From: an uncultured Victivallis sp.
Lineage (GTDB): Bacteria > Verrucomicrobiota > Lentisphaeria > Victivallales > Victivallaceae
Reading direction: 5' to 3'
Length of the DNA: 64,000 bases
NCBI GenBank assembly: GCA_944389895.1
Contig: CALXOA010000118.1
Span: 1 to 64,000 of the forward strand
Shown here: in pieces, positions 22,993-49,389 of the stretch
Layout of the letters: each line of letters starts with the position of its first letter
Position numbering within the stretch: position 1 is the stretch's first letter
Notes under the pieces: model-generated
The model's input: the letters and a program-made list of their open reading frames with translations, nothing else
What the model was told of the DNA's origin: nothing
Databases searched by the model: none
Position numbers and translations under genes: made by a program

Positions 22993-23068
22993 GCGCTCAT
23001 AGCTCAGTTGGTAGAGCAAGTGACTCTTAATCACTGGGTCCTGGGTTCGAGTCCCCGTGAGCGCACCA
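22993..23068 (+). tRNA. tRNA-Lys (anticodon CTT), copy 1
   Basis: 76 bases. The acceptor stem GCGCTCA pairs with TGAGCGC, then A and an encoded CCA. The D arm carries AGCTCAGTTGGTAGAGC, the anticodon loop CTCTTAA gives CTT, and the T arm contains GGTTCGAGTCC. It reads AAG lysine codons. A second, identical gene follows 50 bases downstream. Confidence 0.96.
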
Positions 23069-23118: not shown

Positions 23119-23194
23119 GCGCTCATAGCTCAGTTGGTAGAGCAAGTGACTCTTAATCACTGGGTCCTGGGTTCGAGTCCCCGTGAGCGCACCA
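23119..23194 (+). tRNA. tRNA-Lys (anticodon CTT), copy 2
   Basis: Base-for-base identical to the copy at 22993-23068, including the encoded CCA, while the flanking bases differ. This is a tandem duplication of the gene. Transcription is probably from the same promoter, with the terminator at 23210-23237 ending the unit. Confidence 0.96.
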
Positions 23195-34639: not shown

Positions 34640-36142
34640 ATGAGACTAATTTCAGCCCTGTGTGCGGTACTGGCCGCGTTCTCTGTATCGGCAGATTACA
34701 GGTATGAATTTTCAAATGAAAAAAATCCGCTTGAGAAACTGGTGGCGGCCCCTTTCTGTCTCAGGCAGATCGGTGACAAGATCACCTGGGCGAACGGTGT
34801 CTTGAAGAGTTCCTCCACCAACCTGCTTCTGTATGCCCCGGAAGAGGTCACCGACGGCCGCGTCACCCTCAGGGCGCGTGACTGTTATCAAAGTACTATT
34901 ACCCTTGTCGCCCGGGCAAACAAGGAGTTCAACTCCTATTACGCACTGGAAGTTTCATCCTCGCAAAAGAAGGCGTTTTTCTATCGCACCATCTACGGGG
35001 AACCCACCAAGAAGCAGGAGATCCCGTACGGCGGCGAACGGGAGTTCACTCTGATGCTCGACTTCGACGGGAAAACCGTCACCGGCTGGATCAACGGCAG
35101 CAAAGCGGGGGAGATGCCCGATGACGGCAGACTGAAATCCGGGATGGCCGGCATTCGCGGCGGCTTCTGGACCAATGCCGAACTCAAAAGCCTCGAATAC
35201 TCCGCCGCAATCGCGAAGGCGGAGACGGTCGCGGAGCAGAAAACGCCCGGGAAAACGACAGCGGATGCTTCCGACACCGGTTTCCGTTATGAGTTCACGA
35301 CCGAAGTCAATCCGCTCCGGGAACTTTCCATTGCGTCCACCTCTCTCCCATTGGTCGGCAGCAAAATCAACTGGGCGGATGGCGTGCTGAAAAGTTCCGA
35401 CTGTCACCTGATTCTGTATGCGCCGAAAGAGTTCTCCCGCGGTCGGGTCAGCCTCAAGGCACGTGACCGTTACGAAAGTACCATCGCCCTGATCGCCCGG
35501 GCGAACAAGGACTTCAGCGCCTTCTATGCGCTGGAGGTCTGCCCCTCGCTGAAGAAAGCCTCCTTCTACCGTTTCATCTACGGGGAACCCACGAAGCGGC
35601 AGGAACTCCCTTACGGCGGGGGACGGGAGTTCACCCTGACGCTCGATTTCGACGGAAAAACCATCGTCGCAAGGATCAACGGCAGGAAGGTGCATGAAAT
35701 TCCCGATGACGGCAGACTGAAATCCGGGATGGCCGGCATTCGCGGCGGCTTCTGGACCAATGCCGAACTCAAGAACTTTGAATATTCCGCCGCAATTCCC
35801 GAGGAAGAGACACAGGCGTTGAATCAACCGCCCATGAAACCGGCGGCGAACGTCAAAAAACTCGACCTGAAAAAGATCCGCGACTGGGATCTGGCGAAAG
35901 CATATCGCACTGCGAACGGCACCCGGCTCACCGTAAGCCTGAATCAAGTCTGGAGGTTCCGCCCGGTTTCCGATCAGCGGATTCCCGCCCTCGCCCCGGA
36001 ATCGGAATGGGGGTATTTCGTCGTACCCGGTTACTGGGCAAAGGGAGCCATCAACAACTACATGCGAACGGACGACGGCACCGCAGTGACCGAATGGCGC
36101 GGAATCCCGTTCACAAAAAAGTGGTGTAACATCATGGTATAA
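34640..36142 (+). CDS. Giant GH2-like secreted protein, N-terminal part (frameshifted gene)
   Basis: 500 residues ending at a frameshift. A signal peptide (MRLISALCAVLAAFSVSA) is followed by two tandem modules (residues 20-191 and 215-386), beta-sandwich-like, possibly carbohydrate-binding. Both contain KSGMAGIRGGFWTNAELK. The start of a GH2 sugar-binding domain comes next (LNQVWRFRPV...VVPGYW). The frame stops at 36140, but the expected SWYKRSCNIPEEWRNSRVEL continues in the next frame from about 36120. Dropping one A from the A6 run at 36115-36120 joins both parts into one protein of about 1779 residues (34640-39980). As written, the gene is broken. Confidence 0.85.
   Translation: MRLISALCAVLAAFSVSADYRYEFSNEKNPLEKLVAAPFCLRQIGDKITWANGVLKSSSTNLLLYAPEEVTDGRVTLRARDCYQSTITLVARANKEFNSYYALEVSSSQKKAFFYRTIYGEPTKKQEIPYGGEREFTLMLDFDGKTVTGWINGSKAGEMPDDGRLKSGMAGIRGGFWTNAELKSLEYSAAIAKAETVAEQKTPGKTTADASDTGFRYEFTTEVNPLRELSIASTSLPLVGSKINWADGVLKSSDCHLILYAPKEFSRGRVSLKARDRYESTIALIARANKDFSAFYALEVCPSLKKASFYRFIYGEPTKRQELPYGGGREFTLTLDFDGKTIVARINGRKVHEIPDDGRLKSGMAGIRGGFWTNAELKNFEYSAAIPEEETQALNQPPMKPAANVKKLDLKKIRDWDLAKAYRTANGTRLTVSLNQVWRFRPVSDQRIPALAPESEWGYFVVPGYWAKGAINNYMRTDDGTAVTEWRGIPFTKKWCNIMV
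35117..35187 (+). repeat. 71-base perfect direct repeat, copy 1
   Basis: Identical to 35702-35772, offset 585 bases (195 codons), within the two tandem modules of the GH2-like gene. It encodes the PDDGRLKSGMAG to WTNAEL stretch. Confidence 0.95.
35702..35772 (+). repeat. 71-base perfect direct repeat, copy 2
   Basis: Second copy of 35117-35187. Neighbouring parts of the two modules differ at many positions, so this block has probably been homogenised by recombination. Confidence 0.95.
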
Positions 36143-36182
36143 AAGAAGTTGCAATATTCCGGAAGAGTGGCGTAACAGCAGA

Positions 36183-39100
36183 GTGGAACTGATTATCGAA
36201 GATCTCTGTGGAACGGCGGAGATCTACCTTGGTAAAAAAAAAATTGCCGAAAAGCGTGATCCCGCCATCGGCGTAGCCCGGATCGACGTCTCCGGAGAGT
36301 TGCGGTACGGCGAAGAGAATCTGCTGCTGATCCGCAACACCGGGGAGCTCAATTCGCCTGCCGGACTCGGCAACACCCGGCTGGAGGTTTCCCCCGGTAC
36401 GAATTTCGGCGATGTCGGTATCGCAACGAGCGTCTCCGACAAGACGTTTACTCTCTCCTTTAACGGCGGCTCGGCCCCCTCCGGCAGTATGATCGACATC
36501 GTAATCAAGGATCGGAAAGGCGGAGAGCTGTTCCGGGAACGGCACCCCTTTGCCGAACGGATCACCTGCAGATGGACGGCGCCGGTTCTCTGGTCGCCGG
36601 AGACACCGGAACTCTATTCCCTGGAACTGGCGCTCTCCACGCCGGACGGAAAAATCGCGGACCGCTCCGTCACCCGATTCGGCTTCCGCGAATTTGCCGC
36701 CCGCGACGGTCAATTCTTTCTGAATGGCAAACCGATCATTCTGAAGGCCGAAACCTCCATTCCCAACAAAGGCAACTGGTGGGGACTCGACTATCTGGTC
36801 GACCGCAGGTTTATTGAACCTCTTTTCACAACCTACAAAAAATTAAACCTGAACTGCACGGTTCTCAGCGGACCGCCTTCGGAAGAAACCCTTTCCCTGG
36901 CCGATGAAATGGGCCTCATGTTGCTGGTTAACGGCAGAATGCTCACCCACACGGAACTCGACAGGGACACAGAAAACGCGTTGAAGAAGCTGGAATCCTC
37001 GCTGCGGGAGATGGCGGGGAATCCGGTCTATTTCCGACACCCTTCCCTGATCGGCTTCCGGATCGACGTCTGGTATGGCTACAACGCCGGCTGTACCAAC
37101 CCGAATTACGTCGGCTTGAAACAGGGAGATCCGAATCAGAACGGGATTCCGGCCCTGCGCAGTGAACGCCTCAACCGGATGGCAGCCCTCTATCGGAAAT
37201 ACCTCCCCGGGCTGGAGTGTTTCACCGGCGGTTCCGGAGCGGTCGGCAACGTCTACGGGACCCATATCTACCACACCTGGGGCGCACCATCCACCGAGCT
37301 GCGCGCTTTCTTCGAGGAGTGGAACCGGAAACGGGAGCTGCCCATCTTCGCCGGAGAGACCTATCTTCCTTACATCGGCAGCTTCTTCGACCTTGAGAAC
37401 TTCCACGGCGGCGGCGTTCCGTACATCACCGAAAACGCCGCACGCATCCTCGGCGATGCCGCCTACAACTACCGTACCACGATGAGTCCGCGCCCGTTCC
37501 ACGAACGCGGACGCGCCGGCTGGTTCTGGAGCACGATCGAGAAAAAGGAAGCCGGCACATACGGTTTCTCCGTCGATGCCCCCGCCGCGGTGACGGCGAA
37601 ATACATCGATGAGATCATGACCGGATGGCGTTTTCACCGCCTGACCGGTTACGGCAATTTCGATTACACTGAAAGCTCGTTCGCCATGCAGCGGATCGCC
37701 CCCGAAACGCTGCCCGTCTCAAGCGACTACAGCGACTTCAGTTTCAAGCCGGAAGGTTTTGACAACGGCAATGCCCGCCGTTCCTGCTTCGATCCGCGTG
37801 TACCGGGCTACGATCTGCGTCCGACGCTGCTTCAGGCCCCCTTCGCACATGCGATGGCCGACGTGAGCGCCGCCATTCTGGACAGAGAGGAGGACCCTCT
37901 TCTGCAGAATCACTCCGGTTACAGCGGTGAAACGCTGAAAAAGAGCGTGATGCTTTTCAACGATTCCCCGAAACAGGTCCGATTCCAACTTATGGCCACG
38001 CTTTGCGATACCCAGGGGCGTGTCCTCCCGCTCGGCGAGAGAAGCGTCGAAGCGGCTCCATTTGAACACAAACTCATTCCCGTCTCCATTCCGCTGCCCG
38101 CCACCGGCGACCGTTCGGAGTGGGTATTCCGTGCTCTGCTGAAGGGGGAGGAAAAGATCTTCCGGCTGGAATTTCCGATCCAGGTGTTCGCACGGCCCGT
38201 TGAACTAAAACTCACCTCTCCGGTTCACATCTGGGACCCCGAAGGAACAGTGACGACCCGTCTGATGAAACGTCTGCCTCTGAAACGGCTTGAAAACCTG
38301 GATGCGTTACCCTCCTCGGGAATCCTGATCGTCGGTCGCGGCGCGTTGTCCCGACTCACCCGTATGCCGGACTGGAATGCGGCGGCGGCAAACGGCCTGA
38401 ACATCCTCTTTCTGGAGCAGCATCCGACCGCCTCGCCGGAGCTGATGAAAACCCGGACCCGCCGAACCTACATCAATGCGCCGGCTCATCCGGTGTTCGA
38501 GGGGCTCGGAGACGCCGACTTCGCTTTCTGGCAGGACAGCTTCTCCATCGCCCCCGCAAAAGTCAGGGATGGAGCTGGGATCAACTGGTCCGACTGGGGG
38601 AACCGCAACATGGTGGCAGCCTATGCTTTCCGGCGTCCGCAGCACGGCGGGTATCTCAGCCTTCTGGTCAGCGGGTTCGACCTTTTTCAAACACCGCTGC
38701 TGGAGCACCGTACCGGGAAAGGAGGCTGGATCGCGTCGCAGCTGGAAATCACCGATCGGCTCGGCAGCGATCCGGCGGCAACCCGGTTGTTCGACAATCT
38801 GCTCCGGTATCTGGATCGGCCGGCACGGCCGGCGAAAGTGCTGTTCTTCGGCAGTGAGAACGGGAAAAAGCTGGTCGACCGTTTCGGACTTGACTGTACG
38901 GCGGAAAACGATCTCTCCGGCAACCGTCTGAAACAGGCGGACCTTCTGCTCGTCGCCGATCCGGATTGGGAGGAATTGAAGCGTTACCGCATGGAACTCA
39001 ATGACTTCGTCTATTTCGGAGGCCGGGTGCTCTACTGGCATACCGGGAAAACGTTCGATCCGGGCTGGCTGCCGTTCACGATGGAACTCGCCGAAACCAC

Positions 39101-39980
39101 AGCCTCCCGCGCGGCAATCGCCGGGAAGGCGGACGGCGTCTGGCGCAACGGATTCGGCAACAGCGAACTCTACTGGCGTGAAAAACGGAACGTTCCCGCT
39201 TTCCAGAATGTTCCGCCGCACTTCGATGCAACGGCTCCGGCGGTTCTGGTACGCGGGCGGTTCGGTTCCGGGGAGTGGATTTTCACGACTTTATCACCGG
39301 ATCTTTTCGGTGCGACCGCCGCAACCGGCAAAACGGTCCGGCTGCTGTCGGCCCTGTTTGCCTCGCTCGGGGTGGAAATTGCCGATGCGGCATCCCCGTT
39401 TGTGTCGACAGCCGATATTGCGGAACTGGATCTGAGTGAACAGAAGTGGGAGTTCGCCATCGACGAGAAAGATCTCGGAGTGAAGGAAGAGTGGCAATCC
39501 GGCAAGGGGAACGCCCGCTGGCTGAAGGGGCTGATCGCCGACGGGATCGAAGTCCGCGTCGGGCAATCTTTTGAATCCTTCCTGCGTTACGACTACAACG
39601 GCTATGCATGGTACCGCCTGACATTCGACGTTCCGGAGAATCTCTCTGCCGCACCTCAGCTCTATTTCACGGCGGGCGCGATCGACGATACCGACGAAGT
39701 CTGGCTCAACGGCGTCAAAATCGGTTCCACCGGTAAGGACGTGCCGAACTACTGGGAGGCGAAACGGAATTACCCGATTCCACAGGGGCTGCTTAAGAAG
39801 AGCGGCAACCTGCTCGTAGTCCGGGTGTTCGACGAGAAGGGGAACGGTGGAATCGTCCAGGGACCGGTGGCGCTCTCCGAGCGGAAGCTGGAAGGCTCCC
39901 CACGCTTGTGGCAGACGCCATGGCCCGAGGGTGCTCGACACGATTATGAATACAAAGCCGATCTGGTCCGTATGTATTGA
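36183..39980 (+). CDS. Giant GH2-like secreted protein, C-terminal part (frameshifted gene)
   Basis: 1265 residues from GTG 36183; the homologous frame is open back to about 36120 and belongs to the gene starting at 34640. Domains in order: a GH2-type jelly roll (VELIIEDLCGTAEIYLGKKKI), an immunoglobulin-like sandwich, and a TIM barrel (DGQFFLNGKPIILKAE onward). A Rossmann-like region near residue 690 follows (ILIVGRGALSRL), then a final jelly roll (YAWYRLTFDVPEN...DDTDEVWLNGVKIGS). At the usual GH2 acid/base site the sequence reads RHPSLIGFRIDVWYGYNAG without the NE pair, while ELPIFAGETYLP may hold the nucleophile Glu. Activity is therefore uncertain. The M14 peptidase gene follows after 16 bases. 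Confidence 0.85.
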   Translation: MELIIEDLCGTAEIYLGKKKIAEKRDPAIGVARIDVSGELRYGEENLLLIRNTGELNSPAGLGNTRLEVSPGTNFGDVGIATSVSDKTFTLSFNGGSAPSGSMIDIVIKDRKGGELFRERHPFAERITCRWTAPVLWSPETPELYSLELALSTPDGKIADRSVTRFGFREFAARDGQFFLNGKPIILKAETSIPNKGNWWGLDYLVDRRFIEPLFTTYKKLNLNCTVLSGPPSEETLSLADEMGLMLLVNGRMLTHTELDRDTENALKKLESSLREMAGNPVYFRHPSLIGFRIDVWYGYNAGCTNPNYVGLKQGDPNQNGIPALRSERLNRMAALYRKYLPGLECFTGGSGAVGNVYGTHIYHTWGAPSTELRAFFEEWNRKRELPIFAGETYLPYIGSFFDLENFHGGGVPYITENAARILGDAAYNYRTTMSPRPFHERGRAGWFWSTIEKKEAGTYGFSVDAPAAVTAKYIDEIMTGWRFHRLTGYGNFDYTESSFAMQRIAPETLPVSSDYSDFSFKPEGFDNGNARRSCFDPRVPGYDLRPTLLQAPFAHAMADVSAAILDREEDPLLQNHSGYSGETLKKSVMLFNDSPKQVRFQLMATLCDTQGRVLPLGERSVEAAPFEHKLIPVSIPLPATGDRSEWVFRALLKGEEKIFRLEFPIQVFARPVELKLTSPVHIWDPEGTVTTRLMKRLPLKRLENLDALPSSGILIVGRGALSRLTRMPDWNAAAANGLNILFLEQHPTASPELMKTRTRRTYINAPAHPVFEGLGDADFAFWQDSFSIAPAKVRDGAGINWSDWGNRNMVAAYAFRRPQHGGYLSLLVSGFDLFQTPLLEHRTGKGGWIASQLEITDRLGSDPAATRLFDNLLRYLDRPARPAKVLFFGSENGKKLVDRFGLDCTAENDLSGNRLKQADLLLVADPDWEELKRYRMELNDFVYFGGRVLYWHTGKTFDPGWLPFTMELAETTASRAAIAGKADGVWRNGFGNSELYWREKRNVPAFQNVPPHFDATAPAVLVRGRFGSGEWIFTTLSPDLFGATAATGKTVRLLSALFASLGVEIADAASPFVSTADIAELDLSEQKWEFAIDEKDLGVKEEWQSGKGNARWLKGLIADGIEVRVGQSFESFLRYDYNGYAWYRLTFDVPENLSAAPQLYFTAGAIDDTDEVWLNGVKIGSTGKDVPNYWEAKRNYPIPQGLLKKSGNLLVVRVFDEKGNGGIVQGPVALSERKLEGSPRLWQTPWPEGARHDYEYKADLVRMY

Positions 39981-47183: not shown

Positions 47184-48587
47184 ATGAGATTTTTCAGACG
47201 AATCCTGGCGGCGGCACTTCTGACGCTTCCCGTGTCATCTCTGCCGGCGGCACGGGCGGTTCCGGACCGGGAAAACGCAATCTACGCCCCCGGGGAGGAG
47301 ATTCGGTTCCAGTTGCAGGAACTGCCGCCGGAGACCGCCCGTCTCTCCTACCGCGTACTCGACCTCGAACGCAGGGTGCTCCGATCGGGAGGGATCGCCC
47401 CGGAGCAGACGATTCGATTGAAGGAACTGCCTCCCGGCTACTATGATTTCCAATTCGATATTTTCGATGCTGCAGGACAGAATGCGGCAACCGGGAAATA
47501 CCCGTTCGCAGTGATTCCGGTCGTGGATCGGAACCGCCCCGACTGGAACCTCAACCAATTCGGCGCAATGGTGATGCCGCATACCGCCTATCCGCTGGCC
47601 GACCGGAGACGCGATGCCGAACTGATGAGCCGGATCGGCATCCGTTTCGTGCGGACACAGCGGCTCAACTGGGTACAGATCCAGCCCGATCTGAACCGTC
47701 CTCCGGATTGGGAAACCGCCGACCGCGAGGTGGCGATCTACCGGGCCAACGGTCTCGATATTGTCGCAAACACCGCATGGCCCCTGCCGCGCGAAGCTTC
47801 GGAGGGATTCGGAAGATCGACGCGGGCGGTGGACAAGATGTACCCCGCCGCCGACCGGCTGGAAGCCATCCGCGCCTTCTATACCGGGCTCAGCAGCCGC
47901 TATCGGGGAAAGATCGCCTTCTGGGAGGTCGGAAACGAGGTTGATGCCGCGCTTTTCTGGCTGGGACGGCTCGAACATGTCGAATCCGGAGACAAGGATG
48001 CGATCATCCGGGATTTCTGCGATTACTTCGTACTGATCGCCCGGGCATTGAAGGCCGGTGATCCCGGTGCCAGGGTCGGGCCGAGTACCACCGGCTGTGC
48101 GCCGGACGGGCAGACTTACCGTAACTGGTTGCGAAAATTCCTCGCGGATCCGGAAGCGAAACAGGAGATGAACTTCTTTTCCACCCACTATCGCGCCGAT
48201 TTTGAAGGCATCGCACGGGTGTTCCGGGAAAACGGCATCCCGTCGAACACCCCGGTCATCGTCACGGAAATCGGCGGAATGGGGTCAAAAACCGACAGAA
48301 CGCGCACCGAATGGGAACAACTCAGGGACAACATCCGCATCACTTATGTGCAATGCGCCGCCGCGCTGACCGCCGGAGCCGGAGCGCTCTGCAAATTTCT
48401 GCTCCGGGATATTCCGAATGTCCACCTCAACGAGATCGCCCGGAATGCTCGAAGCGGATTTCCGGCTCCGTCCGGAATTTGTCGCCTATGCGACGATGAT
48501 CCGCGAAATCGGATTCTCGACCCCTGCCGGAGAATGGAATGTGGTCCATCGGGCGGACAACGGCTGGTTGAACTGCTGGGCATTTGA
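47184..48587 (+). CDS. Secreted clan GH-A glycoside hydrolase, N-terminal part (frameshifted gene)
   Basis: 467 residues; the real homology ends near residue 418. A signal peptide (FRRILAAALLTLPVSSLPAARA) and a beta-sandwich (residues 28-112) precede a TIM barrel with WEVGNE (acid/base Glu252) and VTEIGG (nucleophile Glu362), the two-Glu pattern of retaining GH-A enzymes such as GH39. Residues after about 418 (RNARSGFPAPSG...) are out-of-frame noise. The expected continuation, GMLEADFRLRPEFVAYATM, lies in the next frame from about 48442. Removing one C at 48439-48441 gives one protein of about 734 residues (47184-49389). The exact family and substrate are unknown. Confidence 0.82.
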   Translation: MRFFRRILAAALLTLPVSSLPAARAVPDRENAIYAPGEEIRFQLQELPPETARLSYRVLDLERRVLRSGGIAPEQTIRLKELPPGYYDFQFDIFDAAGQNAATGKYPFAVIPVVDRNRPDWNLNQFGAMVMPHTAYPLADRRRDAELMSRIGIRFVRTQRLNWVQIQPDLNRPPDWETADREVAIYRANGLDIVANTAWPLPREASEGFGRSTRAVDKMYPAADRLEAIRAFYTGLSSRYRGKIAFWEVGNEVDAALFWLGRLEHVESGDKDAIIRDFCDYFVLIARALKAGDPGARVGPSTTGCAPDGQTYRNWLRKFLADPEAKQEMNFFSTHYRADFEGIARVFRENGIPSNTPVIVTEIGGMGSKTDRTRTEWEQLRDNIRITYVQCAAALTAGAGALCKFLLRDIPNVHLNEIARNARSGFPAPSGICRLCDDDPRNRILDPCRRMECGPSGGQRLVELLGI

Positions 48588-49389
48588 TGCCGCCGACCGA
48601 CGCATCAATCTTGTGGTGTTGAACGACGCAGACAAAGCGGAAGTGGTATTCGACACCCCCGATCCAGAACTGCGGCTGATCGACCCGATGGGGCGCGAGC
48701 GCACAATCGCGGCCCGGGCCGGAAAAGTGAAATTTCCGCTGGAACGCAGCTTGCCGCTCTTCGTGGAGGGTCGCGTCACTCCGGATCCCGGACCGCCTGA
48801 ATACCCGGAACCGGTTGCGGTTCAAACCCTGAACCTCACGGTCAACGGCGGTTTTGAAGCCCCCGCCGCAGTCAACCGGATTCCAGGCTGGAAAGTGATC
48901 GCCGACGAAACCCGGGGAAAAAGCGGTGCAACCGGGGGCTTCTGCGTCACCGCCGACGCGGGAGAAAGTGCCACCGGCAGGCAGTCGTTGAAAATGAGCG
49001 CCACCCGGAAAACCGGCTGGTATGGTGTCATGCTGGACATTCCGGCGGAGAAGCTGCCGAAACCGGGTTTCGGCGAAAGCCTTGAACTGACGGTCCGTTA
49101 CCGGGTCAGGACAGCCGACGTACAGGGCACCGGCACCGCCGTCACCATCTCGCAGCGCGAAAGAAACGGTCGCCGGATCGCCTGGCATGATTCCGCCTTC
49201 GAATGGGGCTCCTTCGGCTGGGAAACGAGATCGCACCATGTGGCCTTCGATCGCTTTCCGCCGGAACTCGGCAGCGTGTCTGTGGAGTTCTATCTGGGGC
49301 GGGCCACCGGAACCGTCTGGATCGACGACGTAGAGGTGACCGCAACCCTGTGGAGGCTCCCGGGGGCCGACACACGCAGAGTCAACTGA
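48418..49389 (+). CDS. Secreted clan GH-A glycoside hydrolase, C-terminal part (frameshifted gene)
   Basis: Open frame of 323 residues from ATG 48418; genuine homology begins at MLEADFRLRPEF (48445). It supplies the end of the barrel, a beta-sandwich (LVVLNDADKAEVVFDTPDPELRL), and a C-terminal carbohydrate-binding-like jelly roll (LTVNGGFEAPAAVNRIPGWKV...GTVWIDDVEVTATLW) of the CBM4/9 look. On its own it has no signal peptide or catalytic residues, so it would not function if translated separately. Confidence 0.8.
   Translation: MSTSTRSPGMLEADFRLRPEFVAYATMIREIGFSTPAGEWNVVHRADNGWLNCWAFDAADRRINLVVLNDADKAEVVFDTPDPELRLIDPMGRERTIAARAGKVKFPLERSLPLFVEGRVTPDPGPPEYPEPVAVQTLNLTVNGGFEAPAAVNRIPGWKVIADETRGKSGATGGFCVTADAGESATGRQSLKMSATRKTGWYGVMLDIPAEKLPKPGFGESLELTVRYRVRTADVQGTGTAVTISQRERNGRRIAWHDSAFEWGSFGWETRSHHVAFDRFPPELGSVSVEFYLGRATGTVWIDDVEVTATLWRLPGADTRRVN

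What the first reader, a model, noticed from the sequence alone, without database searches (positions are those of the whole stretch)
36115..36120. Single-base frameshift splits a giant GH2-like gene at an A6 run
The frame from 34640 ends at 36140, while the next frame reads TSWYKRSCNIPEEWRNSRVELIIE from about 36129, the exact GH2 continuation. Removing one A at 36115-36120 restores about 1779 residues. Either an authentic mutation, phase variation at the A run, or an assembly error.
Basis: seen in the sequence. Interest (0 to 1): 0.6.

Follow-up and report, generated by a model that had tools for sequence, protein, structure and literature searches.

The report
One-base frameshift breaks a sugar-enzyme gene
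In an uncultured bacterium related to Victivallis, one extra base splits the gene for a large, probably secreted sugar-cutting enzyme into two pieces; this looks like an ordinary recent gene-breaking mutation or an assembly mistake, not a new way of reading genes.

Summary
ORF 34640-36142 (500 aa, signal-peptide-like start) and the frame open from 36129 to 39980 are two parts of one gene for a GH2-like enzyme. The only close orthologue found (Lentisphaeria MAG, 58% identity over the long part) is a single 1779-residue frame: FTK-GGV-SAWYKR, where the window, less one base at the A6 run (36115-36120) or adjacent G, reads FTK-SGV-TSWYKR. All eight other long homologues compared, one a paralogue in the same genome, are single frames. 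Neither part is accelerated relative to the intact orthologue, so the break is very recent or not in the organism. Programmed recoding is unlikely: the site is not conserved, no RNA structure follows, and the coincidental A_AAA_AAG heptamer shifts into the wrong frame. Phase variation at A6 is unsupported. A second gene in the window (47184-49389) is also split by one extra base (CC to CCC at 48439-48441) relative to three intact orthologues. Best reading: recent loss-of-function insertion (about 55%) or consensus error (about 38%). Reads or a second strain would decide. Ordinary; low interest.

The parts
34640..36142 (+). N-terminal piece of the broken gene: signal-peptide-like start, two tandem related domains (the second matches PF06439), start of the GH2 sugar-binding domain; ends at TAA 36140-36142 after seven codons in the wrong frame
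36115..36120 (+). A6 run; by comparison with the orthologue one base of AAAAAAG (36115-36121) is extra
36129..39980 (+). C-terminal piece of the broken gene: rest of the GH2-like enzyme, open to the stop at 39978-39980; first start codon in this frame is GTG 36183, without a signal peptide
36234..36243 (+). A10 tract, in frame, inside the C-terminal piece; Gly-Lys here where the other aligned homologues have Asn-Gly
47184..49389 (+). Second broken gene in the window (glycosidase-like), split by one extra C in CCC 48439-48441; frame A runs to 48587, frame B is open from 48370

Best explanation
The gene is a recently broken copy of a large, probably secreted GH2-like glycosidase. One base was added in AAAAAAG at 36115-36121, most simply by replication slippage. 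Ribosomes then read seven codons in the wrong frame and stop at TAA 36140. What is left is a fragment with a signal peptide but no catalytic barrel, and a barrel part with no signal peptide and only a weak internal GTG start, so the enzyme is probably not made. Shown: the frame break, its position, and the single-frame state in relatives. Inferred: that the extra base is really in the organism, that slippage made it, and that function is lost.
For: Orthologue and eight other long homologues are single frames. The alignment places one extra base in AAAAAAG. No acceleration and no further stop: changes at conserved columns 36 in this copy against 47 in the intact orthologue, 11 against 14 at invariant columns, as expected for a very recent break. 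The rest of the sampled genome shows no convincing internal frameshift (552 kb outside the window; method finds 68 of 150 simulated insertions), which speaks against a high error rate. The second break is an extra C in a run of only two or three, not a typical homopolymer error.
Against: Two one-base insertions about 12 kb apart in conserved, non-decaying genes could equally be a poorly polished stretch of contig. No reads and no second strain were available. A lack of decay fits an assembly error just as well.
Confidence: 0.55

Rival explanations
1. Consensus or assembly error: the organism carries an intact gene and the extra base exists only in the draft assembly.
For: The draft has 131 contigs. 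Both broken genes look fully constrained. A run of six A is a plausible place for an indel error. Two insertions in one 64-kb window against none convincing in 552 kb elsewhere may mean a locally poor consensus.
Against: The sampled genome is otherwise clean, within the 45% sensitivity of the scan. An extra C in CC is not a typical homopolymer error.
Confidence: 0.38
2. Phase variation: the A6 run changes length in the population and switches the enzyme on and off.
For: The break lies at a homopolymer in a gene for a probably surface-exposed or secreted protein.
Against: Six A is below the 7-nt minimum used in a genome-wide survey of such sites (PMC3711429). The orthologue has no run there. 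The site lies about 490 codons into the gene, and a longer A10 tract 113 bases downstream is in frame.
Confidence: 0.04
3. Programmed ribosomal frameshifting or transcriptional slippage at A6 restores the full protein in a share of products.
For: AAAAAAG reads A_AAA_AAG in the zero frame, the classic -1 slippery heptamer (sequence; heptamer rule from memory).
Against: The needed shift is +1 (or loss of one A, or gain of two, in the transcript). A -1 shift runs at once into TAA at 36127-36129. There is no stop codon at the slip site and no stimulatory RNA structure (z = 0.75). Relatives lack both the break and the run. Selection against slippage-prone A runs is evident in many genomes at nine (PMC1088944), and the described tssM cases have 11 and 9 A (PMC4256274).
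Confidence: 0.02
4. Two separate, translationally coupled genes, with the second starting at GTG 36183.
For: GTG 36183 lies 40 bases after the first stop.
Against: Every homologue found is one frame, and coding similarity begins at 36129, before any start codon in that frame.
Confidence: 0.01

Closest known systems
Frameshifted genes and pseudogenes of prokaryotes, as catalogued by GeneTack (PMC3711429)
   Same: Two adjacent frames on one strand that together match one intact homologue; indel of one base.
   Different: No difference in kind; only a single member is known here, with no cluster of relatives broken at the same site.
Genes rescued by transcriptional slippage, e.g. Citrobacter rodentium tssM1 (PMC4256274)
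   Same: A-run shortly before a premature stop in an otherwise intact gene.
   Different: Six A instead of eleven (nine in the Yersinia case), no evidence of rescue, and not shared with relatives.
GH2 beta-galactosidases and related enzymes (for example 3gm8, 6b6l, LacZ)
   Same: Sugar-binding and immunoglobulin-like domains and the start of the barrel match (best profile E 2.7e-23; PF00703 and PF22666).
   Different: The profile match to solved GH2 structures ends near position 308. After HPS this family reads xxxFxIDVWY-like sequence, without Asn-Glu (alignment; GH2 motif from memory). It has a long extra C-terminal part, and this gene has duplicated N-terminal domains.

Membership tests
Frameshifted (broken) gene | Two frames on one strand together match one uninterrupted homologue | tested here: met
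Frameshifted (broken) gene | The indel is present in the organism's DNA and not only in the assembly | not testable with these tools
   No reads and no second strain of the species found
Phase-variable gene | Homopolymer or repeat of 7 or more nt at the frameshift (survey criterion of PMC3711429) | tested here: not met
   A6 only; criterion
Phase-variable gene | Alleles of different repeat length in one population | not testable with these tools
   Single assembly only
Programmed -1 ribosomal frameshift | Slippery heptamer whose -1 frame continues the protein | tested here: not met
   A_AAA_AAG is present but the -1 frame meets TAA at 36127-36129; the continuation lies in the +1 frame
Programmed ribosomal frameshift (any direction) | Frame break conserved among homologues | tested here: not met
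   All homologues found are single frames
GH2 glycoside hydrolase | GH2 sugar-binding and immunoglobulin-like domains before the barrel | tested here: met
   PF22666 and PF00703 above their cut-offs; GH2 structures by profile
GH2 glycoside hydrolase | Catalytic acid/base Glu in Asn-Glu after the HPS motif | tested here: inconclusive
   The alignment shows no Asn-Glu there in any homologue, while a conserved Glu follows in PIFxGE-like sequence; the catalytic residues were not assigned by structure

The most novel reading that the evidence does not exclude
The enzyme is still made from the split gene by a non-standard +1 recoding or slippage event at A6, or is switched on and off in the population by the length of the A run, giving a carbohydrate-degrading bacterium a tunable secreted enzyme.
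Probability: 0.04. Interest if true: 0.5.

Novelty: new member of a known kind. Interest (0 to 1): 0.12.

Why it matters
Mostly for annotation: the two ORFs should be recorded as one broken gene, not as two genes. If the break is real it marks the recent loss of a carbohydrate enzyme in one strain; if not, it flags a stretch of contig for re-polishing, since a second conserved gene about 12 kb away has the same kind of defect.

Tried and rejected
Same species in genome contigs: none found with the single protein; the alignment scan gave eight relatives, the best being the same 58% orthologue already in hand. A first codon-frame scan listed 39 places; fourteen were read as translations and judged by eye; they look like ordinary gene boundaries (signal-peptide, prepilin and transporter starts), with one overlap (L067 near 14740) less clear. 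A stricter rule left nine places: the two breaks, one other in the window and six outside; five of those six had been read, the others were not. Programmed -1 frameshift was considered because of A_AAA_AAG and rejected by frame. Rescue by slippage at A10 (36234-36243) was rejected because ribosomes in the first frame stop before it. Two literature searches on Victivallis listed nothing on this gene.

Full report
Observation. The window lies on contig 118 (101,540 bases) of a 3.76-Mb, 131-contig draft genome of 94% estimated completeness. Its relatives in the public collections are titled Lentisphaeria, Victivallales, Victivallaceae or Victivallis MAGs. The frame from ATG 34640 ends at TAA 36140-36142 (500 aa). 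A second frame, shifted by +1, is open from before 36129 to the stop at 39978-39980. A6 is at 36115-36120.

One gene in relatives. The first piece matches up to FTK, and the second from SAWYKR onward, of one uninterrupted frame of 1779 residues in a genome of the same genus (L003; 44% and 58% identity). Between the two matches the orthologue has GGV; the window with one base fewer in AAAAAAG has SGV and then TSWYKR, so the lengths agree exactly. Eight further long homologues, one of them a paralogue in the same genome, are single frames of 1436-1665 aa. In 78 genomes of the family no homologue matched at E 1e-20 is broken at this site. The orthologue also has a gene related to one of the window's pseudopilin-like reading frames directly upstream; in the window a pseudopilin-like gene (N-methylation motif, DUF1559) precedes the broken gene.

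What the protein is. The N-terminal piece has a signal-peptide-like start (from the sequence) and two tandem related domains, the second of which matches PF06439 (the duplication is seen directly in the translation). The long piece has GH2 sugar-binding and immunoglobulin-like domains, the start of a barrel related to GH2 structures, and a C-terminal sugar-binding-like domain. The family lacks the usual Asn-Glu after HPS, so its exact chemistry is uncertain.

Is it decaying? At columns where at least 75% of the distant homologues agree, 36 changes are unique to the window copy and 47 to the intact orthologue; at invariant columns the numbers are 11 and 14. There is no acceleration and no second stop. 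The break is therefore very recent, or an error. One local oddity is the A10 tract at 36234-36243, where Asn-Gly of the other homologues is replaced in frame by Gly-Lys.

A second break. The gene at 47184-49389 is also split: frame A continues to 48587 and frame B is open from 48370. Three relatives hold it as a single frame of 739-812 aa, at 58-73% identity over the whole gene. The closest reads GAA ATC GCC GGC ATG CTG GAA where the window reads GAG ATC GCC C GGA ATG CTC GAA: one extra C in 48439-48441. This copy shows no acceleration either: 14 changes of its own against 33 in the closest orthologue.

Frequency elsewhere. A codon-usage frame model over 616 kb of this genome, 552 kb of it outside the window, flagged nine places with a strict rule: the two breaks, one other place in the window and six outside. 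Five of the six outside were read as translations and look like ordinary gene boundaries, one of them (L067) less clearly. The rule finds only 68 of 150 simulated insertions, so this excludes a high error rate but not a low one.

Mechanism. A real insertion by slippage and a consensus error are the two live explanations, and nothing here separates them firmly. Real mutation is put slightly ahead because the rest of the sampled genome looks clean and because the second break is not at a long homopolymer. Programmed frameshifting fails on frame (the -1 frame reads into TAA at 36127-36129), on conservation and on structure. Transcriptional slippage at only six A would be unusual. Phase variation has no second allele in its support, and A6 is below the length used in a genome-wide survey.

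Verdict. It is ordinary in kind.

Noticed in passing
window 48439-48441, gene 47184-49389 (+): Second one-base frameshift (CC to CCC) splits a glycosidase-like gene that is a single frame of 739-812 aa in three relatives at 58-73% identity.
   Followed up: yes
window 36234-36243: A10 tract in frame inside the GH2-like gene, where the other aligned homologues have Asn-Gly; one of only four A/T runs of ten in 616 kb of this genome.
   Followed up: partly
window 36129-39980 and homologues L003-L010: GH2-like family of Victivallales without the usual Asn-Glu acid/base motif after HPS but with a conserved Glu in PIFxGE-like sequence; possibly a distinct subfamily.
   Followed up: no
window 22993-23068 and 23119-23194: Two tRNA-Lys genes with the same anticodon (CTT) in tandem, 50 bases apart.
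   Followed up: no
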